From the NCBI GenBank assembly GCA_023053545.1, contig JAKZAN010000002.1, forward strand, positions 4,324,375 to 4,388,374: a stretch of 64,000 bases of DNA, read 5' to 3'. Of this stretch, positions 5,981 through 60,938 are shown piece after piece. Each line of letters begins with the position of its first letter. Within the stretch, counting starts at the first letter, position 1. The notes under the pieces were generated by a model. The model saw nothing but the letters and a program-made list of their open reading frames with translations. It did no database searches and was not told the origin of the DNA. This DNA is from Lepidurus packardi (Eukaryota > Arthropoda > Branchiopoda > Notostraca > Triopsidae). The translations under genes were made by a program, and so were the position numbers.

Positions 5981-6046
5981 GCCTCGACCGGGAATCGAAC
6001 CGAGGACCTTGGGTCCCCAGTCGTGCGAGTTATCCACGCGGTCATG
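5981..6046 (-). repeat. tRNA-derived element with intact B box (copy 1)
   Basis: On the minus strand this reads like the body of a tRNA: an A-box-like GACCGCGTGG, about 35 bp later a perfect B box GGTTCGATTCC, then CGGTCGAGG. The acceptor stem does not pair, and the T stem has a C-C mismatch, so it is not a functional tRNA. It is best read as a tRNA-derived promoter as found in SINEs. Confidence 0.55.
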
Positions 6047-8446: not shown

Positions 8447-9143
8447 ATGGCGGTGGCTAACCTTAGACAGCAGTGGCGTTCTTTGGCAGGCAATTCCTTT
8501 GGAAAACATCGTTGGAGGTTTTCATTAGGGCGGTGGCTAACCATAGACAGCAGTGGCGGTCTTTGGCGGGCAATTCCTTTTGAAAACATCGTTGGAGGTT
8601 TTCAATAGGGTGGTGGCTAACCATAGACAGCAGTGGCGGTCTTTGGCGGGCAATTCCTCTTGAAAACATCGTTGGAGGTTTTCATTAGGGCGGTGGCTAA
8701 CCATAGACAACAGTGGCGGTCTTTGGCGGGCAATTCCTCTTGAAAACATCGTTGGAGGTTTTCATTAGGGCGGTGGCTAACCATAGACAACAGTGGCGGT
8801 CTTTGGCGGGCAATTCCTTTTGAAAACATCGTTGGAGGTTTTCAATAGGGCGGTGGCTAACCATAGACAACAGTGGCGGTCTTTGGCGGGCAATTCCTCT
8901 TGAAAACATCGTTGGAGGTTTTCATTAGGGCGGTGGCTAACCATAGACAACAGTGGCGGTCTTTGGCGGGCAATTCCTTTTGAAAACATCGCTGGAGGTT
9001 TTCAATAGGGCGGTGGCTAACCATAGACAACAGTGGCGGTCTTTGGCGGGCAATTCCTTTTGAAAACATCGTTGGAGGTTTTCAATAGGGCGGTGGCTAA
9101 CCATATTACAGCAGTGGCGGTCTTTGGCGGGCAGTTCGAACGT
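8447..9143 (+). repeat. 80-bp minisatellite array in copy 2
   Basis: Same length and, as far as can be read, the same order of unit variants as the array at 3917-4613, including the rare ATCGCTGGAGG variant at the same position. The array has therefore been copied together with its host unit and not re-expanded independently. Confidence 0.95.
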
Positions 9144-10510: not shown

Positions 10511-10576
10511 GCCTCGACCGGGAATCGAACCGAGGACCTTGGGTCCCCAGTCGTGCGAGTTATCCACGCGGTCATG
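10511..10576 (-). repeat. tRNA-derived element with intact B box (copy 2)
   Basis: Same sequence and position within the unit as the element at 5981-6046, with the B box GGTTCGATTCC. The same stem defects argue against a working tRNA. Confidence 0.55.
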
Positions 10577-10905
10577 GACTTATATTATATACATGTTGAA
10601 ACTTCTATAACTATAATGTATGGACTCAGACAGTGTACAGTGTGAGGATAGCATCCTTCTTTTGTTCGATTTATAGAAATTTGACGGTTCGCCCATTGCC
10701 CATTGACTTGTATTCCCTAGAAGTTTGCATTGTATTTATTTCTTTGTATTATATTTAAAAGTTAATGCAAGCCTGGCGAATATATATATAGTTATATATA
10801 TTTTTTTTGTTGAAATTGAACTTCTCTGGGTTTTGGTGGGCGTGGTTCGGGTGCATTGTGGGGCCTGTGGAGGATGGTGCATTGTGAGGCCAGCAGGAAA
10901 AGGGC

Positions 10906-13900: not shown

Positions 13901-14830
13901 GAATGCGTTTAACAATTTGATTAATTGGTCTTTTTTTTATCTTATTATAGTTGAAGTGGAAATGAAGCAACAATCTCAAGTGATCCATCGCGGTATTGCC
14001 TCGTTCCCATGATGCGAATTTGTCCGCAGCATGTCAGAGAACCGCAGAACCTCCATCGTCTAGCTTCCAGAAGGTGAATTAGTTTCACATATAAATGAGG
14101 ATGTAATAATGGTGAATTACAATGGAAGAGCGACAAACAGTAGATGACACAACTTTTGTTAGGCAGAAGATCTGATCAAGCAGGAAATGATTGTGATTCT
14201 CCATTTGAAATCAGCGTCCAGGATCGGACCAATTTGCTCGTCATTTTCGTAACTTTAATTTGGTCCCTTACAAGATTATGGACTCGTCGGCCTTGTGTCA
14301 CAATCCGGCGGCTTGCAAATATGTCTTCCAAATCTGCAAAGCACCCTGTGGGTTCGACGTTGTGTATTATTGTAAAAAGTTTTGAGAAGAATTGCTTCAT
14401 ATTTTTTTGTTTTTCTTGTAAAAATATTTCCCTCCAGAAACATTGTTCTAGTGCTGCCTTCTAAATCTGTTCGAATTTTTGTTCTGTGATTTTTTTAGCT
14501 CTGAAAATTGGGATTCTAATATTGTGCAAATGAGGTGTTTTGCTTCCCACTGGAATTCCTTATTTGTTGTACCAAAATGTTCCCCGTAAAATCTAGTTTC
14601 CATAAATATCCTTTTTGTATTATCTGTAATTTTTGCAATAAAAGTGACAATTTTGAATGTTTTTGCGTGTTTTCTCAAAAAAATCCGCTAAAAAGTGGGC
14701 GGGGCCTAAAAAATTGACGAATCCTATTGGTGGATTGGACCAAAAAGGGGGCGTGGCTCCTTTTCGAGCTGGGAAAGCGTTTTCTGGGCTTTTTTCCATA
14801 AGGATCCCTGCACGATCAAGGGGGTCCCCT
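10906..14830 (+). repeat. 4.53-kb tandem repeat unit, copy 3 (3' end diverged)
   Basis: Third copy, near-identical to the others to about 14830, after which similarity falls sharply. It carries an 11-bp deletion at about 11319 (copies 1 and 2 read CACCCTGAAGAAACCCTATAACG), single changes such as AGATGACAC at 14143 and GTCGGCC at 14287, and its own order of minisatellite variants. It is thus the most distinct of the three. Confidence 0.93.
12966..13662 (+). repeat. 80-bp minisatellite array in copy 3
   Basis: Same copy number as the arrays of copies 1 and 2 but a different order of variants. Here four neighbouring units in a row are of the CTCTTGAAAAC / TTTTCATTAGGG type, where the other arrays alternate. 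The first unit also has AACACCGTTGG. This fits local exchange inside the array after unit duplication. Confidence 0.92.
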
Positions 14831-15300
14831 TCAAAAATCGTCAAAAATTGAGAGCCTCGCCCCTTTCCCTGTTCCCAACTCCCCTGCTTTGTTTCCTATC
14901 CCCGATATTCGAACTCGTGATGCCACTGCTTCATAATTTCGAATATGAGTATGGAAACTTTGCCAGGAAGGCAATGAGTACTGAGAAAGGAAGCCATTTA
15001 ATATTTAGCTTTTTTGACGAAATAAAATACCTCGACCGGGTTTCGAACCGGGCTCCTTTGTTCCCCCAGTCGTGCGTCCTATCCATTCGGTCACACGCTT
15101 ATGGTGCATATGTGTTGCACGTCCTATAAATTCAATGAATGAACTAAGCTATGTATAGTGTATACAGGCGGGAAACCGCCGATTAATTTCGCTCGATTTC
15201 GCTCCGTTCGCTCGATTAATGAAAATGAACCGTTTGCCTATTGCCATACCTTGTATTCCCTCGATGTTTGCAATGTCATATTTTATTTGTTGTAGTTATT
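14831..15300 (+). repeat. Diverged 3' end of copy 3
   Basis: This interval is the counterpart of 5772-6220 but with many substitutions. It begins near CCCCTTCAAAAATCG and continues through a related tRNA-like element and the stretch ending ACCTTGTATTCCCTCGATG. A short block with TTTCGCTCGATTTCGCTCCG is not in the other copies. The sharp drop in identity marks the edge of homogenisation. Confidence 0.75.
15030..15100 (-). repeat. tRNA-derived element, diverged copy
   Basis: On the minus strand: GTGACCGAATGG (A-box-like), then GGTTCGAAACC (perfect B box) and CGGTCGAGG. It is clearly related to the elements at 5981 and 10511 and fails the acceptor pairing in the same way. The B box has changed yet still fits the consensus. 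Confidence 0.5.
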
Positions 15301-15744: not shown

Positions 15745-15834
15745 TAACCTAACCTAACCTAACCTAATCTAACCTAAGCAAACCTATAACCTAACCTCTA
15801 ACCTAAGCTAACCTAACCTATCCTGACCTAAACT
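15745..15834 (-). repeat. Interstitial TTAGG-type telomere-like array
   Basis: About 90 bp of CCTAA repeats on the + strand (TTAGG on the minus strand). The first four copies are perfect, followed by degenerate copies such as TAATCTAACCTAAGC and CTATCCTGACC. TTAGG is the telomere repeat of most arthropods. Decay and position inside the window argue for an internal relic or seed and not an active chromosome end. Confidence 0.85.
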
Positions 15835-16083
15835 AATTCATTTCCAATCCAACAACAATTTTCAACTCGAGTTACACCCATTTGTCATTCCTTTTCCGGA
15901 GAACGTTTTGCAACAATAATACACACTAGTGTCAATTTTATCTCCGAGTTCCGAAACTGGAGAACCTGTTGCATTTGATTCAGGGCAAACACACTCCTTG
16001 ATGCGGCATTAAGACGAACTATAGAGCAAAACAAAATGACGTTATACTCATATGCCAAAGTCAGGCTGTTTTTGTAGGCGATC

Positions 16084-16795: not shown

Positions 16796-17003
16796 TACAT
16801 TTTACATAATACAAAAAAATTTCCTTACAAAACTGAGCATATGCGTATCGGGTCATGGATCAGTTACAAAAGTTAACACGCATAAATTCAAGACAGAAGG
16901 GAAGAAAGGCAAAATTAAGTATCTGTCCATCGTATCGGAAGAATTGTGATCTTTGTTCGAGAATCACCATTAGGCGTTTACAAAAATAAGTCAAAGATAG
17001 TAA

Positions 17004-20000
17004 TCACCTCGCGTTCATCATGCTTTCGAGCTCTTTAACGCGATCCCGAAATTCCCTTTGCTTATATTTCAATAGCTCACGTTGCAAAGTTTGGCGTAAG
17101 GCTTTCAAATCAGGCAGATCATCGCAAGACTTGATATTGAGCAAAGTGCTGTCCACTGTTCGCCAAACCGGGCTGTGCCAACGTTTCAAAGAACCCGCGC
17201 GCCAAAGGTCTGACACCTTAGTACATTTGACGTACTCGGACAAGAGCATGTTCCATATGACTCCCACAGTTGCGAAATAATCCAACTAGTACACAAAATT
17301 AATTTATAATTAAGACAAGAAATGGGCATAAATGAATTTACTTGATAACTCCAAGACTTTCCGGTGCGCATTTCAATACAGCGGAAATCAGCAGTGCTAA
17401 AAACGTTCATAAACGAAGTTCTTGGCGGATATAAACTCATGTCAATACTTCGCCCCCAGTCTATAAGTTTCAACGTATTCACTTCATAAGCAAATACCGA
17501 TTTTTCACTCCAATTCTCCAACGCTTTCTCCAGACAAGGGCTAAACAGTAACAAAGTTTCGAAAATTTCTATACGAAAAATACTTCAAGTAAAACTTACA
17601 AGTTCTGAAGCATGATATTATCTGCCTTAATATCGCCATGGATGATCTCCGCTGCCTTGAGGCCTTCTAATATGTACAATAACTCGCACGAAAAGTACAA
17701 TACGAGTACTTCGGGCATTCCAGTGTTCTACAAGTTAAGTAATTACCAACACTGAAACCGTTTTAAAAGTTTTCATTAACCTACCTTAAGCTTGTATGCA
17801 TTAATAACGTCCAAAAGCGTTCCTTTGGGCCAATACGCGTTGACCAAAATGTTCCCGTTGTTGTAAAATATACCATGATCCACTTGCATACAGCCGTCCG
17901 CCTTTAAAGATCAGAATTTTTCTTAATCAACACCAAAAACAATGCAAAATAAAAAACATAAACAAACCAAAAACATAATCGAACTTTTTTTTACCACAAA
18001 ATCAAAGCAATGCTCAGTAAGGCGAGATCGTAGTTCAACGCAAATATAAAATTCCCATAGTCCAGCTTCAACTTGAACTTTCAAGACAACGCGCTGCATA
18101 TCATTATCGCGCTCAGCCGTGAAAACCTTGGCGTACGCTCCTTCGCCTATGCATTTCTGGACTCGGTAGCCGAATCCGCCAGCCTGGAATGCCGTGTTCG
18201 GCTTCATGGCCGGTAAATCGCTGTTCACGAACTCGAAACCAGCCTTCTGGGACCAAACCTCCTTTCGCTGGGACAACCAATGGTCCCGTATCTTCTCATC
18301 GAAGGGGTCGTGGTCTACCTCCAAGACTTGTCCAACAACTGGTTCTGGGTTGCTTACTTTCGGCAAGTGAGCGACAAGAAAATCCGCTGATGGCGATGTT
18401 TGTGTATATTCGGGTAAAACATCCAGTTTGGTTTTGCCCCAACTGGTCAAAAGCCCTTGTGTACAGTTGCTCTGGCTCCCCGCGGAAGAAGCTGAAGATG
18501 AACTCGCGCAGGAAGACGAGGTTGATCGAAATTCTCGAGACAGCTCCATAATAGGACTCAACTTCTGGGTCAATACCTCGATGACTTGGTTTTCTACGAG
18601 ACCTTTAGATTCAGGCTTATTATCGACTTTGCCCAAATTTCTCGTCGCCAAACCTAACGCGGCAGAAGTGTCATCTTCTACATCGTTTCGACTCTGCTGA
18701 ACATTGAACAGGGGAAGCATTGGAGTCGACGATATCTTCAGTCCTTGGGCGAATAAACCGGGACTCCGGGGTGGCAACAAGGTAAAGTTGGTAAGATCGG
18801 CTGGGAACGGCGGAATAACGCTCATTTCTTCCGCAATCTTACCGTCTTCTTCGTTTTCCTCAACTTCCTCAGATGGGGCGGTAGCGATATCCAACGCGGG
18901 CTGCAGGATTCCCGCGAGAGGAGTGCGTTTTTGAGGAACAACGGAGTCCACTGGACGCTCGTTTTCCTTGTCTTCGTCTTCCTCCAAGGCCTTCAGCTGT
19001 TTCGCGAGCTCAGCGAACAATTCCGGTTGATTTCCTCTAGGCATCTCGCTTTTCTCTGTTGGATCGATGTAGATGTTGAGCGAATTCGATTTCGGCAGTG
19101 CCTTAGCTTGATTTCGTTGTTCCGGATCCTCGTAAATAGCCAACGGCGCCGGTTTCGCCAGCTCTTTCTCTTGTTGTGGATCGACATAGACTTGAAATGC
19201 CGCGCAAACTGGCTCAACTTCTTTAGGCGGCGATGGAGTAATATCTAGCACGCCTAACGCTTTACGTTTAGGCTTAACCGCTTGGTTTCGCATGGATTCG
19301 CACGCAAATTTCCCTTCATTGTTCTCGCTATCATCGCAAAAGACTTCAAATAGTCTTTGCGTAGGTACATTCCCATCTACATTGCTTTTAACGATATCAA
19401 TTGGAGTATTGAAGTTAAGTGCGGTACACGAAACTGGTATTTGTACCGGGTTCGAAACAGTTTCGTCTCGGTAGACTGCAAATTTGGGTTTAAAGGATCC
19501 AGACTCCATCGCTGGTTCTACCGTGGGTTTCAGACTGGGTTCAGGCATAATAGCTGATCCGCTGAACAGATTATCGATGAAATTTCGTGCCATACGAGTG
19601 TGGACAGTTGGCTCGGTAGTTTTGTCCAGCAGCGAAGTTTCTTTCGAAGGCGGGTTCTCTTGTTTCCCCTCAAACACGCTGTTTTGGGCAGAAATTGCAG
19701 GTAACGGGTCTTTTCGGATGCCGGGAATGTTTAAAATTGAAGTTTCTTTGACGGAAGGGACGTTCTCTTGTCTCAAGAGGCCGTTTTGAGGGATTTCGGG
19801 GAGGAGGGGAATGTCAATGCCAGCGATGTCTGTTTGGGTGCTCATCTCGCAGAACGTTTTCGCAATTGGGGCCTTGGGAGAGACTGCCCGTGCTCTTTTC
19901 TCTTTAGCCCGTGAAGCTCGGAGTTCCTCAATGGATTTTTCGCTATCATTTACATAAATGTCTTTGAAGCACGCCATGTACTTCTTGGTTGGATCCGGCA

Positions 20001-21597
20001 GCTCAGGGACCATGCCTGGAATGCTGTTGAATTCTTCTTCGGTGAGAAATTCAGTGCATGGAACTTTAACCATGGGTGATTCTTGAGGCGGCTGAGTTTT
20101 GGGCAAACGCCGCGGGTTTTGTTTATATTCTAGAGCTCGCAGCTGCTCGATGGAGTACTCGGTGGTACCAGCATAAATGCGGTCCAGGCAGCACATGAAT
20201 TTCAATGTGGGATCTTGAGCTTCTTGGAAGAAAAGCGGAGTTTTGATGGCTTCCTCGGTGGGCTCTGGTTTGCGAGGTTTGAGGATGTTGCTTAACGCAG
20301 CTCTGTGCGGGGTTGCTACTGGAGCAGGTTGACCACGATCTTCGTGGATGTGGAAGGCGGGAGCTACGTAAGTTGACGCATGAGCTAAGGGTACGATGCC
20401 AGTCGTTTTTTGGCCTAAACGGACTTTGCTCCAAGCTCCGGGTTGACTGCTGTTCTCTTTGTTGACCTTGGTTTGGATAGGTGGAACGGTACCAGGTGCA
20501 AATGGCTGATCACTGATCTCATTCTCATCCTATTAAGAAGATTTAGATTTATTTGGTATAGGAATGGGGAAAAGCGACAACTATTTACTTGGTAGACAGT
20601 GAGACCGGGTTTGGAGTGACTGTGTTGTGAACTAGCGGGTTTAGGAATGTGCGACGCAACAGGTACAACCCCTGCTCGGCCCTTAACATGGTCCCCGACA
20701 CGAACAATGGGAGCTATAGCTTTTTTCCCCATTGGCTTTAAAGCATTGAAAACACTGCGCCCCTGGTTTTCTTCTTCGGATTCGTCGTTGTCGTGACAGG
20801 TAGAACGCATAGCGTTGACGGTATTTGTAGCAACTCGGGCTTGAAAGCGTCTGAAAGCGGAATAGTTAACATTAGATACTATTTGTGAAGCAGACAAAGG
20901 GAGAGTAGATTACGCTAAGCTTTCTTGCAAAAGCTGTACCGGCTTAGCCTCATTCGTCAACCCCAGCTTGTGAATCCTCTCAGCTTCTTTCATATTTCCG
21001 CTGATCTCCAAAACATCGGCCCAACGGGCGTAGAACTCGGCCAGGGATTTGAAGTAGCCTTGGCTATACAACTGTTCATAGCTCTCTTTACCGTTTTCCG
21101 TGTTATCTAACTAGAAAAATAAAATAAAAATCTTATAGAAGCAAGATTTTATGAATGGAATATGAGATTATGAGGCTGAAGCCTACATATTTCATCCAAA
21201 CATCCAGAAAGCGGGTATCTTCTTGGTATTTGGCTTTCTCGTGAAGCGCTGACAAACATTTTTCCAGTAGGACTATCAGATTTCCATCGCGGCAGCCTTT
21301 GGGGTAGTTTTGTTCAACCCAGTTTATGTATCTGCTCCAGGGATCAAGCGGATCAATGCCTTTGTATGCTCTTAGCTCCGCTTCAAACTCACTAATAACA
21401 CATATAATCATGTTACAATACACCTAAATGCATTGAAGAAATCTATTAATTAACCTTTTCTTCTCAGCCTTCTTACGATTCGCAGATTCAGCCGTTGATC
21501 CATCGTTAGGTCCCAAGGAAGCCAACAGCTCGTTGATCATTCGACCCTTTTTTAGGGGTTGAATATTCTCTTTGCAGAGCTCCCAAGACTGCTCCAT
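17004..21597 (-). CDS. MadBub-type spindle checkpoint kinase (BUB1/BUBR1 family)
   Basis: Nine exons: 21455-21597, 21187-21391, 20914-21110, 20589-20850, 17995-20529, 17785-17901, 17600-17727, 17342-17540 and 17004-17285. They join in frame to 1355 aa. The N terminus has a KEN box (9-11) and a Mad3/BUB1 TPR-like region (DPWSRYINWVEQNYP). A second KEN lies at 293-295 and a third at 790-792. Two GLEBS-like BUB3-binding motifs lie at about 378-401 and 448-474. ABBA-like motifs lie at 328, 619, 663, 714, 732 and 753. A KARD-like LSPIME lies at 926-931. The C-terminal kinase keeps GEGAYAKV (1064-1071), VVLK (K1086), HGDIKADN (D1185, K1187, N1190) and DWG (1223-1225). Such proteins inhibit APC/C-CDC20 until kinetochores attach. 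The mix of BUBR1 and BUB1 traits suggests an undivided MadBub. Confidence 0.93.
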
Positions 21598-24364: not shown

Positions 24365-25275
24365 TTACCACGCCTCTTTGTTTTCCTTCAAACCCAAGCG
24401 GTTGCTTCGGGGAACTGTAGGCGACAAATGAGGGTACTGTTGTTGGTTAGAGGAATATTCTTGCTCAGCGGGACTGATTCCGACCCGCGGAAAACCTCGA
24501 TGGGCATGGACATTCGTTCCGTTGTTGTGAAGTTGAGCCTGTTTTTGCTTGGCTGGACCCCGAGGACTGTGGGGATAGCCTAATGTTACTTTGGTGCCTT
24601 TGGGATAAGTTCCGGTCGTTTTCCTGCGGTAAAGAACCACGCCAATTATTATGCCGCAGATCGTCATGACAGCCAGGACCGAGAAAAGAATGATAATGGC
24701 GAGATATGGGGCTTCGATGTTCAGGGCTTCGGCTAGGATTTCTCGGTTTCCCATTACGGTAAGTGACTCTGGGTTGAGCGATTCGATGCGTGGCTGTCCG
24801 ACTCTGTGGTGAAACTGCGAAGAAGTCAAATCAGCTGCCATGGAATGCCCAGCTAACTCAAACACCAAATAACCCGATTTAACCTAAAAGAATAAAGTAT
24901 TTTAGTAGCTTGAAGGTTAATAGATTATGTCTTAAGGTGAATTGGGCTCTAATTACCATATCTTCGATTTGTGAAGCAACATCAACCGTATTTTCCCCAA
25001 TTAACGTAAACTGAATACGGGGGTCCTGGGGCTTATCTTGCACAACAACTGTTTCTTTCATCGTGCTGGCTTCCAACATTTGCAACAATTCGTCCATTTG
25101 ACTTTGTAAAGCCTCTTCCATCGAGGATCGGTCCATCTGCATTCCATGGCCATCCGCAAAGCCCAACGAAACTGCTACAGCGGTAACAGGCACATATTCT
25201 ACGAAAATTATGTAAAATAACACAATTATAACACAAACGAAGACATTCTATACCACATAAAATAAGAATCTTCAT
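24365..25275 (-). CDS. Small single-pass membrane protein, family not recognised
   Basis: Three exons: 25254-25275, 24957-25198 and 24365-24883, in phase, giving 260 aa. Exons 1 and 2 together encode a signal-peptide-like start (MKILILC, then VPVTAVAVSLGFADG). A short ectodomain of about 125 residues follows, with a helical acidic part (EEALQSQMDELLQMLEAS) and a strand-rich part (IQFTLIGENTVDVASQIEDM). Residues about 148-172 form one transmembrane helix (APYLAIIILFSVLAV...GVVLYRRK). The cytoplasmic tail of about 85 residues is rich in Pro, Gln, His and Lys. The layout resembles the membrane-proximal part plus tail of cadherin-23-like proteins without cadherin repeats, but I cannot confirm this. 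It has no Cys in the mature ectodomain. Confidence 0.7.
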
Positions 25276-25850: not shown

Positions 25851-28800
25851 GGCATGTTTGGGTGTCTTTCAGGAAAAGTGTTGAATTCGGCAATTGGTTT
25901 CCTGCTTCATCTACACACCAACATTGTACTGGTTCTTGCGCGCTTTGCTTGTTCACACATTGCAAGGGTTTAAACCTGAAGAAACATATTTTACTACAAA
26001 TTTCTTATTTTTTGCTAGCGATTCCACGTACTTGCCCAATACGTCACATTCGACAAGAAAACTGTCTTTCTTCGCTTCTTGGTTGTTCCTCATTTTCTGG
26101 CACCTCGTTATTTTGTCCACTTGAAGAGATTTCCCTCGTTTACCCACCCATTTTTTCACTGGTTTGTGCTCGATCGTGCCTACCAAGCCTTGATCTTTGA
26201 TAATAACACCAATTTTGGATGTGGTGGAGCTTGCTTTTGTGGTAGAAACCGATTCGATCGACGGTTTAGCCGAAACATGGCCTTGCCGATAATCAACGAA
26301 GACTTCTGGGACGTGGGAAGTCATAGATTTCATTGTGGTAGTTGTTGTTGTTGTGGTAGTCATAGGTTTCATTGTGATAGTCGTTGGGGCAGGAGTTGTA
26401 GTAGTAGAAGTACTAGTATTTATTGTTGTTGTTGCTGCCGTCGTAGTAACAGGTACCGCCAGCTGGCATTGAATTGGACTGCCTTCGAAATCCGTAAATC
26501 TGGCCTGGCAAGTGCAAGGATCGACCACGCACACGAATTCCTCATGCCCTGGGCAGGTCAAGCTGTCATTGCACACAGCGCTGCGTTGGCAGCCACGGAC
26601 TTCTCCGTTTTCGCTCATCCGTGGGCACAAAACAAAATCTAAAAATAAAAAAGCATATAAAACGACGTTCGTTCTCGTGTTTTTACGGATTTTTCTACCT
26701 GGACAGCGGCTTTCGCATTGTTGCTTGGTGTGGAAATTGTTGGGATTACCTCCACAGCCTCCAAAATCGAATTCCTCACATTGACGAGTGTCGGAGTTGT
26801 AGTACCAACGCGCGAAATTGGCTCTACAGAAGCCTTCTTCCTTGGGTAATTCGCAGACATCCACTATACCCAAAAATTAATTAATTAAAACTCCAATTCG
26901 ATAACACTAACAGTAAGTTGGCTAAATACCTGGCTTTTCGCATTCCATCTGACACTCTTCCAATGAGTAAAAGTTATTTTCGTTTCCGGCGCAGCCGCTG
27001 AAGATAAATTCCTGGCATTGCTGGGCAGTATTATTGTAAAAATATCGCTGGAAGGCAGCACGGCAATACCCAGAGCTCTGGGGCTGGGTACACTTACTTT
27101 GGCAGTCCACTGGTTCTCCATTCACACTATTTTGGTTACATAATTCAATTAATTCAATAAAGTCAAGTGTTAAACAGAAATAACGGCAGGTTAACTTACG
27201 TTACAAAGCGCACGCTGCATTCTTTACAAGGATCTGCGACGCAAATGGCGTCCGGATGGGCATAGCACTCAGCTTCAAAGCACTGGTGACGACAAACCTG
27301 CGGAACGATAGCTGGGTCAGCACAAACGGTGCCCAGAGGTCGCTGTTCCAAGATAGTTCCGCTTGGCGAGCATTTGACGCTGCCTCGCGTCAAACTATCA
27401 TCAATAGGTCGACCATCTGCGTTAACGCACCAGCTCAACACGCCTTGTTGCTGCTCCCGGGCATAATCTCCCAAAGAAGTGCACTGCGGAGGGGTTAAAG
27501 TCATGCTGAGGGGTGTGGCCGCTGCTGGATTAGCGTTCCAAGGTACCAGCATGGGGGCCGTACATAATGTGCCACAGGTACTGGGGCAACAACGTAAGTT
27601 ACCGTGACAATCTGCGTCAGAGATGCATTTATCTTCACACTTGACTTGGTCACCAAACTAAACAAATATTTTCCAAATTTAAAAACGATTTTCAATCAAA
27701 AAATATAAAAAAAATATTTCAAACTTGTTTTACCTGAGTTAAGAATCGGAGGATACTATTTGGACGCACAAAGGGACAAAATCCGGGTTTAATGGCATCT
27801 CGTAACGCTGGGAGGAGTTTAGGAACAGCTGTTGTGGGTTCCCAACTGACAGGTTTCATTTCCGCCGTTTTCTCCCTCCCTTCATTCTCCCCAGAATCAA
27901 TTTCGATGGCAAAGTCTGCCAAAGTGAACTCATCGAACTCACCTAAACACGAAAACTGTTAAGAAATGAAAACATGGAGCGTTCAGCAGGAGCAAACCTA
28001 GTAATCCGTCATCCATAGGCGAGGTAACCACATCATCTTCGTCTCCATTCGTAGTTCGCTTGCTTCGTTGAGCTACGGTCAGAATTGAAGTGACTGGTAG
28101 CTTAGGAATACCTTGATTACCATCATGGAATACTAAGGCGCGTTCTAAACCGTTGCGGGAAGGTCTGAACTCCTCGGCGTCCACTTCTGGCGTCCAGAAG
28201 GGAGAAGCAAAACCAAAACTAAATGAAGCAGGAATCTCCAAAACGCGCATGCTGTTGAGAATTGTCTGAGTTTCGCGTTGGCAAGGCGTCAAGCTTGAAT
28301 TGCAGTCAACTGGGTGGCCGTTGCCATCGTAAAACACTGCGTGACAACCATTGCAAGGATTTACGCGGCAAACGGCTTTTGGGTGGCCCAAGCAAACGCG
28401 TTTGGAACACAGATCCTTGGGACACACATGAACAGTTTGGCCTTCTTCGCAAACTATAGAAAGAACGATTTCTTTTAGAATTTTCTTAAAAAATAACAAG
28501 TTAGTATTTACAATTCTCCAAAATATTAACACAATACAAATAAATAAAATGTAAAAATATATTTAAAAACATAAATAAAAAACATAATTAAAAACAAATT
28601 TTTTTTTAGAGATTATGAAGACTTGTAAGGAAGAAGAATTGTAGAGAATTGTAAGGAAGTTATACACTTACTGTCAGGATCGAAAGAGCGATGACGAGCT
28701 TGACGAACACCGCAAGTGGGCGTGCCTCGGGTCAAAGAGCCTTTAATAGGTTCACCGTCCTTATCAACACACCAACAAATTCCGACTTCTTCCAGGCATT

Positions 28801-31800
28801 GAATCAAATCCCAGTCACCACTTACGGAGCATTTTGGCATGAAAACCACTTTCTTGTATTTTTCAGCTACTTTGGAATTCTTTTCTCTCATCTTTTCGCA
28901 GGTAGACAATACTGTAACAAAACCGAAAAGATGTTTAAACATGTTTAATTTCGCTCAGTTTAGAAGCACTCTGTGGTACCTGGGCAGACGGTTTTGCAAT
29001 CTTGCTCCGAAGCAAAATTGTTCATGTTTCCTCCACAGCCAGTGTAACGGAATGGTTCGCACTTATTTCGCTTGTCATTAAAAGACCAACGTAGGGCAGA
29101 AGACTTGCAGGAACCTATATCACGCTCCTGGAAACAAACTTCGCCTGAAAAAGAAAAGACCATTCAAATCCAAAGACTTTTTTTTTAATTTAATCGACGT
29201 AGGCTTGTCCCTGATGTCGGAAGTCATAATTTTAAAATAATAATAATAAAACAACGCAAGAGACTTATGGGAACTTCACGTATTCTTCGAAAAGTGCTCG
29301 GGTAAAATTTTTTGATCTCTTGTTGAGATCTGGTTTTACCACGTGACCACATTAATGTACAAATTTGTGAGAGGAAATAAAAGTCATAATAATAATAATA
29401 AAAATAAAATGGGAAATATAAAACAGATAATTACGTGGTTTGGGACAGCAAACTGCGAATTGACCGAGCGGACTCAGATGACATTTATGGGAAGAAGGAC
29501 ACGCCTCTTCCATAGCTCCGCAAGCAGCGAGTTGACCGCTAGCTCGTTTTAAAGGCTGACCGTTGGGTCCGCAAGGATTGGTTGGTTTGGGAACGCACAT
29601 GGCTACCGGAGGACACGGTTCTTGGATGCAATGAAGAGAAACAAGCTGGCACTCCTCGAAACTCCTACAATTCATTGCTTGGCAAGGGTTGTGGCAGCGG
29701 CATTCTGGACAGCCCGAAGCATCAATATGGAAACCGTGAACGCAACTCAGACTGCAGTTGAAGGCTGGGCATTCTCTTGGTTCTAAAAACAAAGAAATAA
29801 AAAAAAAAAAAAAAAATTTTTAAATAAATATCCTTTCATCAATAAGAACACTAAGATTCCATTTCGTCAAACTTTAGAAGACAACCGAAAGCTTACGCTG
29901 GCAAGTAGGGTCCAAACCAGGAGGAACACGAGTACCAGCAACTTCCAGTCCGGCGTTGTTTACGCACCAGCAAGCTCGCGTCAAAGGATCGCACTGCACA
30001 AGTGCATATCGTCCGTCTTCCAAGCAGCGAGGTAAGAAGACCCTATTGGCGGGTATACCTTGTTCACGTGCTGCATACTTCAAGATATTCAACTGATGTT
30101 GACAGCCTAAGAAATTTCAAAATGAAAAAGCGAGGTCTAATTAGGTAATATTCAATTTAGAGCTTACTGGTCTTCAATACGGGATCAACGCATTGTGTAC
30201 CGCAGCCATTGGAACAGCATTTGGTGGTTCCCTCGCATTCCGCATCACTGGCGCATTGAAAGTCGCAACTGGCGCCCATAGGAGTCAAATACGGACACTG
30301 ACCAACTTTCGCAATTTCTTCTAAAAAGACAAATCGAAAGAAAGGAAAGTTAAGCACAATTGCGGTACTTGAAAGAAAAAATACAAATATAAAAAAATAT
30401 AAGTATAAAGTATAAATACAAGAAAGTAGAAGTAGAATTTGATATTTTTAAGAAAAGCGTTAAAGAAAAATTGAAATTAAAGCACTTACTTATGTTGGGA
30501 CAGCACACGCCTGTCGTAGAATCTTCCTCGCTAGTGCAGGAATAGCCATCAGGGCAAGATAACGCTCGACTACGTGGATTGCATTCCAAATATGTATCCG
30601 TAGAGAGACTGAGGTAGGGTTCGCCTTCAGGACAAACGGAATCTGTTCTTTTCACTGCCACGCCTACAAAAGCAAATTATTGTTACAGAAAGAAAGAAAT
30701 CTTTCCAAGGAAACCAAAACAAAGGTTTAAAAAAATCCTTCATTTTTTTTTTACTTACAAAAAGGTAAAGGTGGGCAAAAAGGTTCTTCTTGGCATGGGG
30801 TAGAGACCATCTGACAGCCTTGTCCGGCTCCGCATGTAATGCTAGAACAAGGGTTTCTGCACTGACACAGAAGACAATTTGTGCTATTATCACGCACGAA
30901 TCCAAAATCACAGCCCAAACGACAAGTCATTCCAGGACAATCCAATTCCGACCGCGATCTCTGGCAGGTAGTCACGCTATCAGCTGGCCCTCTGTAAAAA
31001 AAAAAAGTTACCCTAAATTGTTTCCCGAGTCAAGTTAAAAGAAAATAGACCTCGAATGCGGTATCTCAATGCCAAATTCATCCACGCACCAGCACTGGTT
31101 ACCGTGACACTGAATGTTTTCATATTCTCCCGTTTCCGTGCATTTAGGCGGGGCTAAAGCAGCAGCTAAACCCACTGGTACTTCTCGTTTGCCTACGCTA
31201 ATATCCCGCAATAGTTCGCAAACTGGGAAAGAAATAAAAAGGTTATTTTATACATCAGAATCAACCAAACATGAAATTCTCTATTGTTCAATATTTAAAA
31301 TCTTTAAAATCAAATAAATCTTTAAAAATTATAATAATAATATACTACTACTACTGTTAATAATAATAATAATAATAATAATAAAAGTAATAAAAATAAT
31401 ATAATATTTACAGTTCAACTTAAGCATATTAAGTTTTCTTGCAGTAATAATTACTTGTGGGCAAACGTTTTTCAGGTTCCATTAAATCGAAGTTTCTGGG
31501 AGGCAGTAATTCCGGATGTTCTGGTTCGGCACACACAGGTCCGCATTCCCCAGCCTGACAACATTTCAAGATTCCAGGACAGTCATGGTCGGTTCCACAA
31601 AGTAGAGTATCGTTACAATGGCTCTCATTAAGAACAGGACACGCACCTTCTTTGGTCAGCGCTATTGAAACGGAAATTAATGGGTTGATTTTCTTGAAAG
31701 TTTCCTTCACTTTTTTGTATCTATTCTTTTCGTAAGGTAATGTTATAAAAAAGAACATACCTGTTTTCGGTTTATCAGGACAGCAGAAATTGGCTTGATT

Positions 31801-34800
31801 GGCCAGACTGTTAACGCAATGGTAGCCCGAAGGACAGGAAAAGCGAGAACCTACCGAGCAGGAAATTGCTTTGCCTGTAACCATGTTTGTTAAGTACATC
31901 CCAAAGGCGCAGGGCTCAACAAACTTCGGTTTGCCTAAAAAATAAAAAAGTTATGATAATAATGGTATGCTTAAAATATCTACTTCGCGGAAGTAGAGTT
32001 CAATGATTAATTTGATTGGACACTTACACGTCGGTTTGGTAGGGCAATGTCGGCCTTTGCATGTTTCCTCATGAACCATTGCGCACTCCTGTCCTTCCGG
32101 GCAAGGATAATGATCGCAAGGCTGATCACATTCACATGTGGCGCATCCGCGAGCGTCAACTCGGTATCCAAACTCGCAAGTCGAGGAGCATAGTGTCGAA
32201 TCGCATAAACTCCTCCCCACAGCATTCCCTAAAACCAGAAAATATTAAAAATATTTGCGTTCTTCATAAGCAAAATTATGCATACATTCTCCTCCATTGC
32301 AGATCACACCGTCAGCGGAGCCCATGCTGCCTTTAATCTTTCTACCTTGGGAATCCACACACCAGCAAACTAGTCCATTGCGACTGCACTGACGGGGCTG
32401 GAACTGCCCTTCTTCAGTGCACTGGGGAACGTATCCCATGCCTTCTTCTTGTCGAACAGTGAGCATTTCCGTTATCATCTTTTGTTGCAGGCAAACTATG
32501 GGAAACCGAAAAATTGTCTTATAAGCCGAAAGTTTAAGAAGACGGTGTAGTGGAACACCTTATGGCGTTCAAGCATAGCAAAAAGGGATGAAAAAATTCT
32601 CCTTCCCTATGCAATACAACCAATTGAATTGCGACAGTAATGCACATGACGTATACATCTATTACACATAGATTGTCTACTTTTATTATCTTTTCCATAA
32701 TTTTTTTCTAATGTTCCAAGTTACGCAAATCTTAAATAAATCATATATCAAAATGAAACGACCTTTATCTACTAGATTTTCTTAAAAAAATAATTTTTAG
32801 TAACCTCTTTTTCTTTTAGATAACTTTAAGTTTTGCGTTTATGAAATTGCGAAAAGAAATTGCATATGGCACAGGGTATAGGTGTCTGTCATCAGTGCCA
32901 TCTTTTGACGAAAATTATCAACTACTATTAAGTTAGGATGTTTTTGATTACCTGTGAAGTTTTGCGGGGGTATGCAATGTTTGCCACAGGCGGTACTGTG
33001 GCAGCATTTATCAGCGCCTTGACATTGCAAATCCATATCACACGGGACACCACACATTGTCGCATTAGCGTGATGTTCCGCAGGGCAGGTGCCTGGTTTT
33101 TGTAAACGGTTGGCCGCAGGGCAACATAATCCGTAATCAGCGCCTACCAGACACCAGAAGTAACGTGTGAATCATCGTATTACAACATGCTGCGTTGCTC
33201 AATATGCTCAATATGACTCGCTACATACAAAGCCATATAAAACCGCAAAAGATTTTGTACAATACTTAAAGAGTCATACAAGAACTTGGCTCCAAGGCGT
33301 TACAATCACGTTATTACAATGGATTTCAGCTTCCCAGCCATTCAAAAGTCCGGAAACTTACCAGGTTGCACGAGGCAATCGTACAGATCAGGGCAAGTGG
33401 GTTTTCCGGGATCGGTTCCACACAGGAATGGTTTTTCTACCACCGCATCGCCTCCTCCTCCTCCAGGCATCATTAACGGTATTCCCATGGGACAATAACT
33501 GTCTAGAGACCGCGCTTTCTTACCTAAGTATCAGATTGCCAGAAATGTCAGAAAAAAATAAAAAGGTTCAATACAACGGTAAGAGACAGACAATCACCGG
33601 AGATGATCTAGATTTACATACATGTGGGGAGGGGTGGGCATGGTTCTTCATCGCATGGTGCTTCTTCCACCTGACACATTTGGGATCCAGGGCATTTGAT
33701 GCCGCGGCAAGGATCTCGACACTGACAGAGTGGGCAGCCTTCCGCATCCAATTCGAACTCATAAGGGCAGAGCATGCGGCATACGAATCCGGCACAGGGT
33801 CGTGGATCTAATAATAATAACATTAATTAATGCATAAATAATCATACTGACCTTAATCTAATTTTTTTCCTATTTTTCTTGTCCAGGAGTAGAATTCCAG
33901 AGACTACATTAACAAAAAAATCACTTACTAGTGCAATTGATAAATTCCAACGATCGTGCGCGGGTTCCCGGGCGCTCCAAACCCGATTTGTCGACGCAAA
34001 AACAATGGCCTTCCAGAGGGTTGCATTGAACAGGTTTAAAATCGCCTACTTTGTTGCATTCAGGTACAGCAATTTCATTGTCGGGCAAATCTAAGGCTCT
34101 GGCTCGTTTAACAATCTCCACACGTTGTTTCTCACACGCTAGAACAAACAATTGAGACTGAATTCTTCTGGAACAATTCTTTGAAAGAAGACGAATTAAA
34201 CCTTGAACGCAACAAGAAATCATTTGAAAGAGGAACAAAAGTCAAGCTTAACTAGAAAGCTCGCAGATGTAAAAGCATTATTTCCTCTTGGCCGCCTATA
34301 AAAAAATATCTTAAAACGTACAAACTGTAGAAAGTAGAGCGTGTGAATAATCGCATTGTCTCCTGCCAAAGAAAGAGAAATGTGCCTCATTTTCCCAAAG
34401 CGAAATCCTACGAACGATTTTTCATAAAAAGTTTCATCACGCCGACTAATTTTTCACGCTATAGTCCCTTTAAACGACGGGCTCATTCAACAAAATCCCA
34501 AAGCCACCAACCAGCAAACCAAGTAACATCAACAGGTAAGCAAAAGGTAGAAAGTACAACGGTATGTGGTACAGGTACACAAGTTAGGTCCATGAGTGGG
34601 TCTGAAGAAAACCGCAAATATGATGAGAAAGACTGCAATCTAGTTTCTCTCCTTTCTGATCTAGCCCCGTTTATGAAGAAAGTTACTCTCTCAACAGGTG
34701 GCCATAATAAGAAAAACTTTGTGACACCTTCAAGGAGAAAGCTTAAGTTCCTCAAAAGAAAGTACTGCAAAACGGAATTATTATTAAAGACGCAGTAGAT

Positions 34801-35804
34801 TTACTTACAGCTTAATATAGGCATAATGCAGACCCTTCGGCATCCATCACTGCAACATCGGGAGGATCCTGAGCAGTCTTCATCCAAATCACATTCATCG
34901 GTTTGATCACCTGGACAATGGCTAAGATCTCGTAATCCGCTTGTGGGGCACTGACCCACCTTTGAATCTAAAAACAATAATGAAATACGTCCATTACTAA
35001 CCGTGAACATGATAACGTCAAAAAAATACCCCATAAATTACACTTTCGCTACAACGAAACTATCTAGCGAAGATAAACGTGTGTGATATAGGTCGAGGAC
35101 TTAGCATTCGAGCCCTCTGGGGAAATGGAATTTGTAAAACAAAAAGGAAGGCTTTGGTGTGAAGAAAACAAGTTGACATGGCACCAGTGTTTTTGAGTCA
35201 TGTAATTATTGCTGAAGTTCAAGGAATAGCGGGATTTTCGCTGGATATGTCCTGTCTTGTCTTCCTTTTGATTCCGTGGTCCCCTAAATTGAGGTCAGTC
35301 TTTAGCTTCCCTGGACTGGCTAGGCCACAAAACCGGGCAGCAATGTTAACTGACCTCAATAGAACGGGATCGGTCAATCCCCTCCAACTATTTTAGGTTT
35401 CAGCAGCGATCAAATTTTCGAACTTGTTACCCACTAATATAACTTTGGTAGACACCAAGCTATACCGAGTATGCGAGAAAGTTGTTTGATCGCAACAAGG
35501 GCTTGCAAAGAAAAGGTTCGTTAGGAATACGAACATTTTGGAGTGTGTTAAACTGTCAAGCCTTTTGTGGCGGGGCTGCCAAGCAAGTAAAGGATGGCGT
35601 TTCCGGCCCTAAGGGTATTTTACGAAATTTCTTATACCTTACCATGTTCAAAACAAATTACGCAACGAAGTCTTTTTTGTTTCCATTATTTTTTCTTCAA
35701 AAACGATAGAAGTTGATGATACGTTGTTGCTTACCTATAAGGATGGCGCTACTGGTAGCCAAACACCAGCAGATAACCAGGAGCCCATAGCTCCGTATCC
35801 ACAT
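25851..35804 (-). CDS. Giant secreted multi-domain protease inhibitor (WAP / thyroglobulin-1 / antistasin / lustrin / Kunitz)
   Basis: Twenty-five exons can be followed with every phase agreeing: 35735-35804, 34809-34967, 33929-34138, 33622-33807, 33362-33523, 32952-33143, 32286-32495, 32028-32228, 31761-31934, 31455-31661, 31051-31222, 30759-30991, 30490-30663, 30168-30320, 29897-30106, 29435-29782, 28980-29144, 28672-28911, 27998-28453, 27734-27942, 27200-27657, 26930-27126, 26699-26863, 26032-26638 and 25851-25975. The product is about 1,895 aa plus a short tail. After a signal peptide, the series WAP, thyroglobulin-1 (CWCVD core), antistasin, lustrin-type Cys-rich repeats four times. Then follow a Kunitz, thyroglobulin-1, a Cys module with DPC, WAP, thyroglobulin-1, a second module, two Kunitz domains, a third module, a Thr-rich mucin-like linker and a final thyroglobulin-1 split by an intron. 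No membrane helix is seen. Likely role: extracellular inhibitor of serine and cysteine proteases in matrix, cuticle or haemolymph. Confidence 0.9.
32640..32905. repeat. Relic related to the intronic MITE at 42743
   Basis: This intron of the inhibitor gene ends with GGTGTCTGTCATCAGTGCCATC. It shares the 15-mer GTCATCAGTGCCATC with the terminal repeat of the inverted-repeat element at 42743-43107. It also shares AAATCATATATC and a similar spacing. The other end is not recognisable, so it is a decayed or truncated relative. Confidence 0.45.
34343..34798 (+). other. Unexplained open frame inside an inhibitor-gene intron
   Basis: A 152-codon open stretch on the + strand fills most of the 670-bp intron between the first WAP exon and the first thyroglobulin exon. 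It starts at GTG, and its first in-frame ATG is near 34591. It is basic and Ser/Lys-rich with no domain I recognise. It contains a strong donor-like site (CAACAGGTAAGC at about 34530). It may be chance, a nested gene or transposon remnant. Confidence 0.2.
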
Positions 35805-41316: not shown

Positions 41317-44300
41317 TTATTCTTGGTAAATTCGACCTTCGGGATCGCTTCGCGCAGTCGAAAAGCACAACTTGGAGATGTAAGGAAACTTTCCATCTAA
41401 GAAGCAATCAAAGCACGATTAGACCCCATAAATCCAACCATATGAACATCGTAAACTTACTTGGATTGGGGACAGGAATGTGATTACAAATGACTAGCAC
41501 TTCCACGGCTTCGGCGATGCTATCAAATTCTGCCAACCCAGAACAACTTCGTTCGCCTAACATAAACAAACGATAAATAAAAGAGCGCTATTCAATTCGT
41601 AAGCAATGGGGAATAAAGAATCGCTTACTTTTGCCAACGAACAGCGTAATCTTGATAGGAAGAGGAGCGTTGGCATTAGTAAAGTGCTGACGAATATCGT
41701 CTTCAGTAGTTGTGGGTGGGAAGTTGAAAAAATGTAGAACTTTGGTGGGCGACTGGATTCGATTTTTGCTAGCCAGCTCGGGGGTAGAGAACCGGTTATT
41801 CTTGCTATGAGAGAAGTTCTTAAAGGACGGACTCCCATTGGGCAAGTCATACGGCTGCTGTACTTCAGCCAAAAACACTTGCTTTGAATGTCTACCGAAA
41901 CAAACGAGCATTAATAACCTCAACGAACACCAAAAATTACGCTACAAATCTTACCCAAGTTGCATTTTGGATCCAAAGAAAGTCGTATTGTTGAGATGGG
42001 CTATCGCTCGTTCCACAGCAGCTGGATCACTCATCTGGACCATGGCGGAGCCACTTTTGGTTTTGAGAAACTTGGCTTTGACTACATTGCCATAGAGACA
42101 CAGCAAATTGAAAACTCGATCCGGGTCCATTTTGTCTGGATTCAACGAGTACAGTATCAAAACACAGCCTTGTTCACCGCTATGATTCCGCGGATCTTCG
42201 GGATGCAACCCACTTGGTGCTACTCGGGACAGCGGAGCGAACGGTGGGCCCCCACCTGCTCCTCCCCGGCCTCCTACGTGACCATTTCCATCCCGTGGGC
42301 CGTGCAGTTCAGCACCTGGTCGGTAAGGATCATCATAATAGCCACGTGGGTATCGCATGGCGTGTCCACGGCCGCTACCACTGGCTCCGCCCCCTCTTGG
42401 CGGGAACCGGGGTTCCAACATGCGTTCGCCTCCATAATCGACACTGGCGTGACCTCGGTACTCTTCCCCACCCCCTAATCGCAGTTCATTAGCTACACAC
42501 AATTGTCTCCTTTCCTTTTGTTTATTCAAAATTTTCACACTTACGGTATGGTACTGCGTTAGCGCCAAAAACAGGTTCTTGAAGGAGAGGTCCTTGGTGA
42601 CGAGGTCGACTTTCTTTGCCTTAAATAATAATAATAAATTAAGTAATGTAGACATTGACGGGAAAAACGTTTTTCTAATAACGCAAACAAACAGTCATTA
42701 AGGCCACGGTGAACTGCAAGTAGTTGAGCATTTTTGTCAACAGATGGCATTGATGTCATACATATGATGGCATATGATGAGAATTATGCAACTTGAAATA
42801 AAAATCTAAACGAAATTTAACGATACAATTGAAAAATTTATTTTTCTAAAAATTAAAATATCGTCATAAAAATATATTGGTAGTCTGCGTCAAAAGATTT
42901 AGATATACGATTTATTTAAACTTGTTGAGGTTATCAAAATTTTATATAAATCATATATCTAAACTTTTAACGCAGCCTACCAAGATATTTTCATTACCAT
43001 ATTTTAAAAAAAATAATTCTTCAATTATATCGTTAAATTACTTGTATTTTCCTTTCGAGTTGCATAATTCTAATGATATAGGGGTATGTCATCAGTGCCA
43101 TCACTGATGACATACCCCTAATCGAGTTTGTCATGTCAACTGATCAACTACTTGGAATTCACCAGGGTCTTAATATAAATAAATCTAGTCGTTTACGTAA
43201 ATAAAATGAAAAACTCGAGAAAAATGATTGAGAAGTCATATACTTGGACTCGGTGTGGTGTAATCCCACGTTTCTGAATCGTTCTTGTACACGTTCAACC
43301 GGGTTGGCTAGAAAAAAGGGACAAAAACCCACAAAAAAGACATTGAGTAAGCAAACGACAAAACAATCGTACAAGAGTGACTTTTCTCGACTACACGCCG
43401 AAAGTCATCTGGCAGCTTCCGTTCATGTAAGTTTGCTTCTGCAGCTCTAACGAGCATGTGGGAACGTGTCCGAATTCTTGACAAATTACCCACCTGGCTT
43501 GTCACTCACTCAGATAAACAATTCCTCAAGCCAATCTCGTCTCGGTTGAACGTAAACCGTCAAGAGCACAACCCCCAAAAACTAAAACAAACCACCGACA
43601 AGTACAAAATCCTTCTCAATGGACAGTCGTTGCCAAACTGGCATTTCCTGCTAATGGAGAACTCGAGAATGAGCCTCTTAGGGATTCCAATGCTTAAGAA
43701 TTTCATAGTTTTTTAAAAAATATTTTCATTAACAGCTTATTCCAACAGATTTATAGGCTTTGAAGGCGCGTCTAAGGCTATTCAATCTTGCCAGATATTT
43801 CCCAAGATGACAGGCATGGGTTCTATTTTTAAATAAACTTTCGCAGCCCACATAAACCTCGCCCCGTTTACAAGATAAAAACCACGGAAGTTTGCCTTGT
43901 CACGTGCATAAATTACATGAGTCAGTCATCTCATGGTGTGGCAGTGGCTCAGGGCTCGGAAACTCCGAAAGGAATGGTGTAAGGGGGGAGGGTTAGCTCC
44001 TTGAGGCATGTAAGCTAAATATATAGAGCGCTTTCGCCCCCCTATCCCTCAAGCCACCACAAGCCGCACGGAAAATGCCTGGTATGCGACGAGTAAAGTA
44101 GATTGACTTCTTGGCGCTTCATTGACGTTTACTTATATCCCAGACGCAATTTCCAGACTGCAAACTCGCAAGGTTATAAGCCACGCAAATCTCGTAAAGG
44201 CTCAAAATGCCTTCACACTTGGGTAACTGCCCCCCCCCCCCCCCCTTTCCATACTCAACAGCTTGGAGCATTGCATCTGCGGCTCATCCGTCTCAAACTC

Positions 44301-59358: not shown

Positions 59359-60938
<1,580 letters not shown>

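What the first reader, a model, noticed from the sequence alone, without database searches (positions are those of the whole stretch)
29435..34967. Four-fold WAP-thyroglobulin-antistasin-lustrin cassette
The same four-domain order repeats four times with matched exon sizes: thyroglobulin exons of 210 bp three times, lustrin exons of 174 bp twice, nearly all in phase 1. The cassette therefore grew by duplication of a block of exons. Four inhibitor types against different protease classes are packed in one secreted chain.
Basis: seen in the sequence. Interest (0 to 1): 0.75.

Follow-up and report, generated by a model that had tools for sequence, protein, structure and literature searches.

The report
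Membrane-anchored array of protease-inhibitor modules
One arthropod gene appears to encode a very long cell-surface protein carrying four copies of the same run of small protease-inhibitor modules, a large member of a known but unstudied arthropod inhibitor type.

Summary
Exon sizes and phases are as stated. But this is only the front half of a predicted 27-exon gene, 35804-24365. It adds three Kunitz domains, three more thyroglobulin domains, a fifth WAP, a Thr-rich stretch and, against "one secreted chain", a transmembrane helix and tail. A furin-type motif (RSKR) lies between the halves. Each cassette also has a fifth module, between antistasin and lustrin, without a Pfam match. Domain order (3.8e-7 for random order) and introns at identical codons in the copies support block duplication. 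Domain trees reject no topology: the copies are old and their order is unknown. Thyroglobulin proteins with WAP and antistasin domains shared by insects, crustaceans and mites are already published (PMC3407033, passages), so this is a large member of a known, uncharacterised kind. "Four protease classes" is overstated: WAP and antistasin are both serine-protease inhibitor types, and lustrin has no established inhibitory role. Function is inferred.

The parts
35735..35804 (-). exon 1: start codon and hydrophobic signal-peptide-like leader
   Evidence: GT donor, phase 1; no signal-peptide program was run
34809..34967 (-). cassette 1 WAP1 exon
   Evidence: Pfam WAP 32.6 bits; exon limits
33929..34138 (-). 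cassette 1 thyroglobulin-1 exon (210 bp)
   Evidence: Pfam 63.6 bits
33622..33807 (-). cassette 1 antistasin exon, with unnamed 6-Cys module at 33622-33715
   Evidence: Pfam Antistasin 30.3 bits; unnamed module residues 178-209
33362..33523 (-). cassette 1 lustrin, first part
   Evidence: Pfam Lustrin_cystein 30.9 bits over both parts
32952..33143 (-). end of lustrin1 plus cassette 2 WAP2, one exon
   Evidence: WAP 36.3 bits
32286..32495 (-). cassette 2 thyroglobulin-1 exon (210 bp)
   Evidence: 54.5 bits
32028..32228 (-). cassette 2 antistasin exon, unnamed module at 32028-32124
   Evidence: 31.3 bits; residues 432-464
31761..31934 (-). cassette 2 lustrin exon (174 bp)
   Evidence: 36.6 bits
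31455..31661 (-). cassette 3 WAP3 exon
   Evidence: 31.0 bits
31051..31222 (-). cassette 3 thyroglobulin-1 exon (172 bp, phase-2 end; last Cys in next exon)
   Evidence: 49.3 bits
30759..30991 (-). cassette 3 antistasin exon, unnamed module at 30759-30855
   Evidence: 24.9 bits; residues 694-726
30490..30663 (-). cassette 3 lustrin exon (174 bp)
   Evidence: 41.0 bits
30168..30320 (-). cassette 4 WAP4 exon
   Evidence: 42.4 bits
29897..30106 (-). cassette 4 thyroglobulin-1 exon (210 bp)
   Evidence: 62.7 bits
29435..29782 (-). cassette 4 antistasin + unnamed module (29595-29690) + lustrin in one exon
   Evidence: 30.8 and 36.0 bits; residues 936-967
28980..29144 (-). Kunitz 1 exon, Lys after the second Cys (P1 by position)
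   Evidence: 67.4 bits
28672..28911 (-). thyroglobulin-1 domain 5 exon
   Evidence: 58.6 bits
27998..28453 (-). unnamed Cys module a (28293-28424) and Cys-free linker
   Evidence: three-copy module; no Pfam match over cut-off
28056..28067 (-). furin-type motif RSKR (residues 1285-1288) in the linker
   Evidence: motif only
27734..27942 (-). linker end and start of WAP5
27200..27657 (-). rest of WAP5, degenerate thyroglobulin-1 domain 6, start of unnamed module b
   Evidence: WAP 31.1, thyroglobulin 25.4 bits
26930..27126 (-). end of module b and Kunitz 2 (Arg at P1 by position)
   Evidence: two Kunitz stretches, 123.5 bits together with Kunitz 3
26699..26863 (-). Kunitz 3 exon (Arg at P1 by position)
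26032..26638 (-). unnamed module c (26457-26585), Thr-rich stretch, first part of thyroglobulin-1 domain 7
   Evidence: the Thr-rich stretch itself was not sent to Pfam
25851..25975 (-). rest of thyroglobulin-1 domain 7
   Evidence: 45.5 bits
24957..25198 (-). membrane-proximal region, first exon
   Evidence: open only in the model's frame, codon log-odds +0.41 against an intron maximum of -0.03
24365..24883 (-). last exon: membrane-proximal end, transmembrane helix (about 24635-24709), cytoplasmic tail of about 89 residues, stop
   Evidence: hydropathy only, no topology program was run

Best explanation
A gene, unique of its kind in this genome, for a 2147-residue type I membrane protein that works as a multi-headed protease inhibitor at the cell surface. 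SHOWN BY SEQUENCE: leader, four WAP-Tg1-antistasin-unnamed-lustrin cassettes, Kunitz, Tg1, an unnamed module, a Cys-free linker with RSKR, WAP, Tg1, unnamed module, two Kunitz, unnamed module, Thr-rich stretch, Tg1, a hydrophobic helix, tail; all as a predicted splice model. SHOWN INDIRECTLY: the cassettes arose from one ancestral block by tandem duplication of exons (order and intron sites). INFERRED: a furin-type protease can cut at RSKR and release the cassette half while the rest stays on the membrane; the Kunitz domains (P1 Lys, Arg, Arg) and antistasin domains 1 and 3 (Arg at P1) block trypsin-like proteases; the Tg1 domains block cathepsin-L-type cysteine proteases; lustrin and the unnamed modules act as spacers or matrix contacts. 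The likely setting is an epithelium or its apical matrix, where proteolysis during growth and moulting must be limited.
For: Gene model of 27 exons, 26 GT-AG introns (chosen as such), no internal stop over 2147 codons. Domains. Cassette order 3.8e-7 under random order. In 4 of 4 cassettes a phase-1 intron splits the codon just before the first Tg1 cysteine, and in 3 of 3 cassettes with an intron there it splits the codon of the last cysteine of the unnamed module. Hydrophobic segment, mean 2.97 over 19 residues; the last two exons have coding codon usage. In the own genome 3 of 3 lustrin, 4 of 6 antistasin and 7 of 14 Tg1 exon matches lie in this gene. Basic P1 in 3 of 3 Kunitz domains. Tg1 domains as inhibitors mainly of C1A peptidases: PMC3407033 (passages); tick Tg1 protein inhibiting cathepsins V, K, L: PMC10889554 (passages). 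Related inhibitor needed for cuticle and moulting: MLT-11, PMC13181417 (passages).
Against: No transcript, protein or expression evidence. No orthologue was seen. RSKR is a motif match only, and in MLT-11 the predicted furin site, the thyroglobulin domain and all three lustrin domains were dispensable (PMC13181417, passages). Tg1 domain 5 has a phase-1 intron only four residues before its first cysteine, so the intron site is not wholly confined to the cassettes. Codon usage separates frames imperfectly: one wrong frame of each of the last two exons (+0.06, -0.01) also exceeds the intron maximum, though with 2 and 5 stops. Antistasin 2 and 4 carry Ser where 1 and 3 carry Arg; the reactive position is aligned by recall (hirustasin).
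Confidence: 0.55

Rival explanations
1. Mainly a structural or adhesive matrix protein: the disulfide modules are scaffold and few or none inhibit proteases.
For: Antistasin 2 and 4 carry Ser where 1 and 3 carry Arg, and Tg1 domain 6 has lost cysteines (alignments); lustrin and the unnamed modules have no known inhibitor role; in MLT-11 lustrin and Tg1 are dispensable (PMC13181417, passages).
Against: All three Kunitz domains keep six cysteines and a basic P1; six of seven Tg1 domains score 45 bits or more against a cut-off of 20.6.
Confidence: 0.2
2. A secreted inhibitor only: the frame ends in a separate transcript before the membrane exons, or a short isoform predominates.
For: AATAAA at 32687 (intron) and 26424 (exon), and six ATTAAA between 32337 and 27793, on the minus strand; a 652-bp intron precedes the membrane exons.
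Against: Phase-matched junction and coding codon usage in both last exons; the open frame that holds the first membrane exon has no methionine before its middle and so no leader of its own. The lack of a polyadenylation signal in the 652-bp intron is no argument, since the 1000 bp after the stop codon also lack the six variants tried.
Confidence: 0.15
3. An EpCAM-like adhesion or signalling protein whose last part (Tg1, membrane-proximal domain, helix, tail) works like EpCAM, the cassettes being an added ectodomain.
For: Same order Tg1, membrane-proximal region, helix, tail; phmmer lists EpCAM and TROP2 at E about 1 for the Tg1-to-helix stretch.
Against: An EpCAM/TROP2 C-domain profile scores the region no better than shuffles (467 of 2000 made, 1687 of them reported, reach it); hhalign probability 0.4%; no PF21283 match by hmmscan or in the own genome, where however the region is split over two exons.
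Confidence: 0.1

Closest known systems
Arthropod thyropins with WAP-ATN (antistasin) domains (PMC3407033, passages)
   Same: Thyroglobulin-1 domains associated with WAP and antistasin; reported as shared by insects, crustaceans and mites
   Different: The passages I saw do not give cassette number, lustrin, a membrane anchor or a furin site; their supplementary architectures could not be opened here
Daphnia pulex WAP protein counted in Table 1 of PMC5673224 (sections 11 and 12 and passages seen)
   Same: One WAP sequence with 5 WAP domains and five thyropin sequences in that species; this gene has 5 WAP domains and this genome 5 thyroglobulin loci
   Different: The table gives counts only; that the two are the same gene is an inference, and this genome has WAP matches at three further places
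C. elegans MLT-11 (PMC13181417, passages)
   Same: Large protein with leader, thyroglobulin, lustrin and Kunitz domains and a predicted furin site
   Different: 1 thyroglobulin, 3 lustrin, 10 Kunitz; no WAP or antistasin in the passages seen
Drosophila CG5639 (PMC3348937, PMC4299277, PMC6896185, one passage each)
   Same: Listed as a predicted inhibitor, as fly orthologue of the WAP protein SLPI, and as misregulated in a grainy head study
   Different: Its domain layout was not seen in any call; likeness to this gene is recalled and untested
EpCAM / TROP2
   Same: Thyroglobulin-1 domain next to a membrane-proximal region, one helix, short tail
   Different: No significant similarity in the membrane-proximal region
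Limpet shell proteins with WAP and antistasin domains (PMC3374290, passages)
   Same: Many WAP domains with antistasin-like domains in one chain
   Different: The word thyroglobulin does not occur in that paper's main text; shell matrix

Membership tests
Thyropins (thyroglobulin type-1 domain proteins) | Thyroglobulin_1 domains over the Pfam cut-off | tested here: met
   7 of 7 domains over 20.6 bits, lowest 25.4
Thyropins (thyroglobulin type-1 domain proteins) | Demonstrated inhibition of cysteine proteases | not testable with these tools
   needs purified domains
Arthropod WAP-ATN thyropins (PMC3407033) | Thyroglobulin-1 plus WAP plus antistasin in one protein | tested here: met
   on a predicted splice model
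Arthropod WAP-ATN thyropins (PMC3407033) | Thyroglobulin domains fall in the published WAP-ATN tree group | not tested
Canonical Kunitz inhibitors | Kunitz_BPTI match with six cysteines and a basic P1 | tested here: met
   3 of 3 (Lys, Arg, Arg)
EpCAM/TROP2 family | EPCAM-Trop-2 C-terminal domain | tested here: not met
Pacifastin, Kazal or serpin inhibitors | Matching Pfam domain | tested here: not met
   no Pacifastin or Kazal match in the ten segments scanned (Thr-rich stretch not included); Serpin only at E 0.35, below cut-off

The most novel reading that the evidence does not exclude
A membrane-tethered, furin-releasable inhibitor array in which an ancestral five-module block was doubled twice and the copies then took different targets (Arg versus Ser at the antistasin reactive position in copies 1,3 versus 2,4), so that cell-surface and shed halves control different proteases. 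It would include two small cysteine modules without a described Pfam family (four and three copies).
Probability: 0.25. Interest if true: 0.5.

Novelty: new member of a known kind. Interest (0 to 1): 0.33.

Why it matters
It is a clean example of exon-block duplication building a long inhibitor, with intron sites preserved better than sequence. If the membrane anchor and furin site are real, at least this arthropod WAP-ATN thyropin is not a simply secreted inhibitor but a surface protein or sheddable precursor, which changes where one would look for its targets. Counting cassettes across arthropods would date the duplications.

Tried and rejected
Block duplication by domain trees: all three four-cassette topologies accepted for every domain type and for the concatenation, so neither for nor against. 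Best-scoring topologies conflict between domain types, none significantly.

EpCAM-like ending: suggested by layout and by my reading of the sequence; pairwise BLASTP, profile, hhalign and Pfam tests gave no support. One search stopped with an error after the profile test, so the planned pairwise shuffles were not done.

Homology of the unnamed module (4 copies) with modules a, b, c (3 copies): similar cysteine spacing, but profile scores are reached by 61 to 772 of 1000 cysteine-preserving shuffles in the 7 comparisons, and by 27 to 345 of 1000 free shuffles. Kept apart. Sub-threshold Pfam matches for a and c (VWF E 0.31, zf_ULT1 E 0.09) were set aside as below cut-off.

Structure prediction: antistasin plus unnamed module failed (mean pLDDT 44); module a reached 72.5, but none of 127 Foldseek matches in the PDB had E <= 0.001.

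Relatives elsewhere: two scans of genome contigs and two of viral contigs found no relative, as expected for an animal gene; no animal genome other than the window's own is held. Rfam gave no match in the window.

Polyadenylation signals as evidence of gene ends: dropped, because the 1000 bp after the predicted stop also lack them.

Literature searches. No paper in the library held all five of thyroglobulin, antistasin, lustrin, Kunitz, WAP.
Full report
CHECK. I read the minus strand of the window and chained exons by open frames, GT-AG sites and phase. The finding's limits are exactly the start of the WAP1 exon and the end of the antistasin4+lustrin4 exon. Pfam, run on ten segments (all of the protein but the Thr-rich stretch), gives WAP, Thyroglobulin_1, Antistasin and Lustrin_cystein in each of the four cassettes, 16 of 16 over the curated cut-offs. 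Exon lengths: thyroglobulin 210, 210, 172, 210; lustrin 162 plus part of the next exon, 174, 174, and shared with antistasin4 in a 348-bp exon. Phases: 15 of 16 cassette-region introns are phase 1.

THE WHOLE GENE. The open frame does not stop at 29435. Eleven further exons follow to a stop at 24365; the product is 2147 residues with no internal stop, with 26 introns of which 21 are phase 1, 3 phase 2 and 2 phase 0. Downstream of the cassettes come Kunitz 1, thyroglobulin 5, an unnamed cysteine module, a cysteine-free linker, WAP5, a degenerate thyroglobulin 6, a second and (after Kunitz 2 and 3) a third copy of that module, a Thr-rich stretch, thyroglobulin 7, a membrane-proximal region, a hydrophobic helix and a tail of about 89 residues. 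So the protein is predicted to be membrane-anchored, not simply secreted. The last two exons are the weakest link: they have coding codon usage (log-odds +0.41 and +0.18 per codon; the highest of 500 intron windows is -0.03) and are open only in the model's frame apart from the final stop; but one wrong frame of each (+0.06 with 2 stops, -0.01 with 5 stops) also exceeds the intron maximum. The 652-bp intron before them has no polyadenylation signal of six variants tried, but neither have the 1000 bp after the stop codon, so this says nothing. AATAAA occurs at 32687 and 26424 and ATTAAA at six places between 32337 and 27793, so shorter isoforms are possible. RSKR at residues 1285-1288, in the cysteine-free linker, is the only R-x-K/R-R motif in the protein.

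A FIFTH MODULE. Between antistasin and lustrin every cassette has a 32-33-residue, six-cysteine module. A profile built from the four copies gives positive scores only at those four places in the protein, 49.8 to 55.1 bits. No other Pfam family was reported in the four cassette segments nor for copy 1 sent alone. The cassette is therefore five modules long.

HOW THE CASSETTES AROSE. The order argument: 24 of 63,063,000 random arrangements would be perfectly periodic. The intron argument: in all four cassettes a phase-1 intron lies one residue before the first thyroglobulin cysteine, and in the three cassettes that have an intron after the unnamed module it splits the codon of that module's last cysteine. 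Thyroglobulin domains 6 and 7 have no intron at the first site; domain 5 has one three residues further upstream, so that domain may share the origin. The exceptions look like later intron gain, loss or movement: lustrin1 has an internal intron, lustrin1 and WAP2 share an exon, antistasin4 and lustrin4 share an exon, and the thyroglobulin3/antistasin3 boundary is displaced and phase 2. The duplications are old, and their order is unknown.

CONTEXT. The window lies in a 108.6-Mb genome. Its globin matches come in close pairs on C3 and C1, which by recall resembles the two-domain haemoglobin genes of Daphnia; with a degenerate TTAGG-type repeat at 15745-15836 I take it for a branchiopod crustacean, an inference. 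In this genome 3 of 3 lustrin, 4 of 6 antistasin, 7 of 14 thyroglobulin, 5 of 10 WAP and 3 of 34 Kunitz matches fall in this gene; these are exon-wise searches and lower bounds, and lustrin1, being split, is missed. None of the lustrin or antistasin matches lies at the four other thyroglobulin loci; one of those loci has a Kazal-like stretch by eye. No second gene of this layout was found.

WORKING. The residue after the second Kunitz cysteine is Lys, Arg, Arg in the three domains, as in trypsin-type inhibitors. The antistasin reactive position, aligned by recall to hirustasin, is Arg, Ser, Arg, Ser in cassettes 1-4 (alignment). Thyroglobulin-1 domains inhibit mainly C1A cysteine peptidases (PMC3407033, passages); a tick protein of two such domains inhibits cathepsins V, K and L (PMC10889554, passages). 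Lustrin domains have no established inhibitor role. In MLT-11 they, the thyroglobulin domain, Kunitz 9-10 and the predicted furin site could be deleted without overt phenotype, while deletions of Kunitz 2-10, 3-10 or 7-10 were lethal (PMC13181417, passages); this weighs against giving every module, or the furin motif, a vital role. My best reading is a surface-anchored, possibly furin-cut inhibitor array acting on serine and cysteine proteases at an epithelium; only the architecture is shown.

KNOWN KIND. PMC3407033 (passages) reports arthropod thyropins with Kazal, Kunitz, antistasin, WAP and SPARC domains, and a WAP-ATN group shared by insects, crustaceans and mites. PMC5673224 (section 11) counts one WAP sequence with five WAP domains and five thyropin sequences with eleven domains in Daphnia pulex. 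This gene has five WAP domains and this genome five thyroglobulin loci, which fits, though this genome also has WAP matches elsewhere. In the same table Drosophila has three WAP domains in two sequences, and Ixodes and Tetranychus none, so cassette number probably varies; the zeros sit awkwardly with the earlier statement that mites share the WAP-ATN group. The arrangement is thus a large member of a known arthropod kind whose physiological role was described as little known (PMC3407033, passages). I saw no description of the four-fold cassette, the membrane anchor or the cleavage motif in the searches listed under Tried and rejected; the published architecture list could not be opened.

VERDICT. 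Real and well seen; not a chance pattern. Interpretation right about block duplication, contradicted by the gene model about a secreted chain, overstated about protease classes. Moderate interest.

Noticed in passing
window 1-14900 (approximate): A unit of about 4.52-4.53 kb is repeated three times in tandem (two 300-nt stretches 100% identical in all three copies, spacing 4529-4530 and 4519), with an 80-bp minisatellite of about 7 to 9 copies at four places.
   Followed up: no
window 15745-15836: Degenerate interstitial array of the arthropod-type telomere repeat, TAACC on the plus strand, 76% matches.
   Followed up: no
window 17000-21423, minus strand: By eye a BUB1/Mad3-like checkpoint kinase gene with an 868-residue open frame; not searched.
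   Followed up: no
window 41951-42694, minus strand: By eye an hnRNP L-like RNA-binding protein; not searched.
   Followed up: no
window 28293-28424, 27200-27294 with 27093-27126, 26457-26585, minus strand: A 43-residue cysteine module in three copies (72.7 to 79.9 bits) with no Pfam match over cut-off and no Foldseek match at E <= 0.001 for copy a.
   Followed up: partly
own genome C3:8583227-8698346 and C1:8303282-8304135: Globin matches in pairs about 550-610 bp apart, four pairs on C3 and one on C1, suggesting two-domain haemoglobins.
   Followed up: partly
window 60558-60750: Perfect TA dinucleotide run of 193 bp.
   Followed up: no
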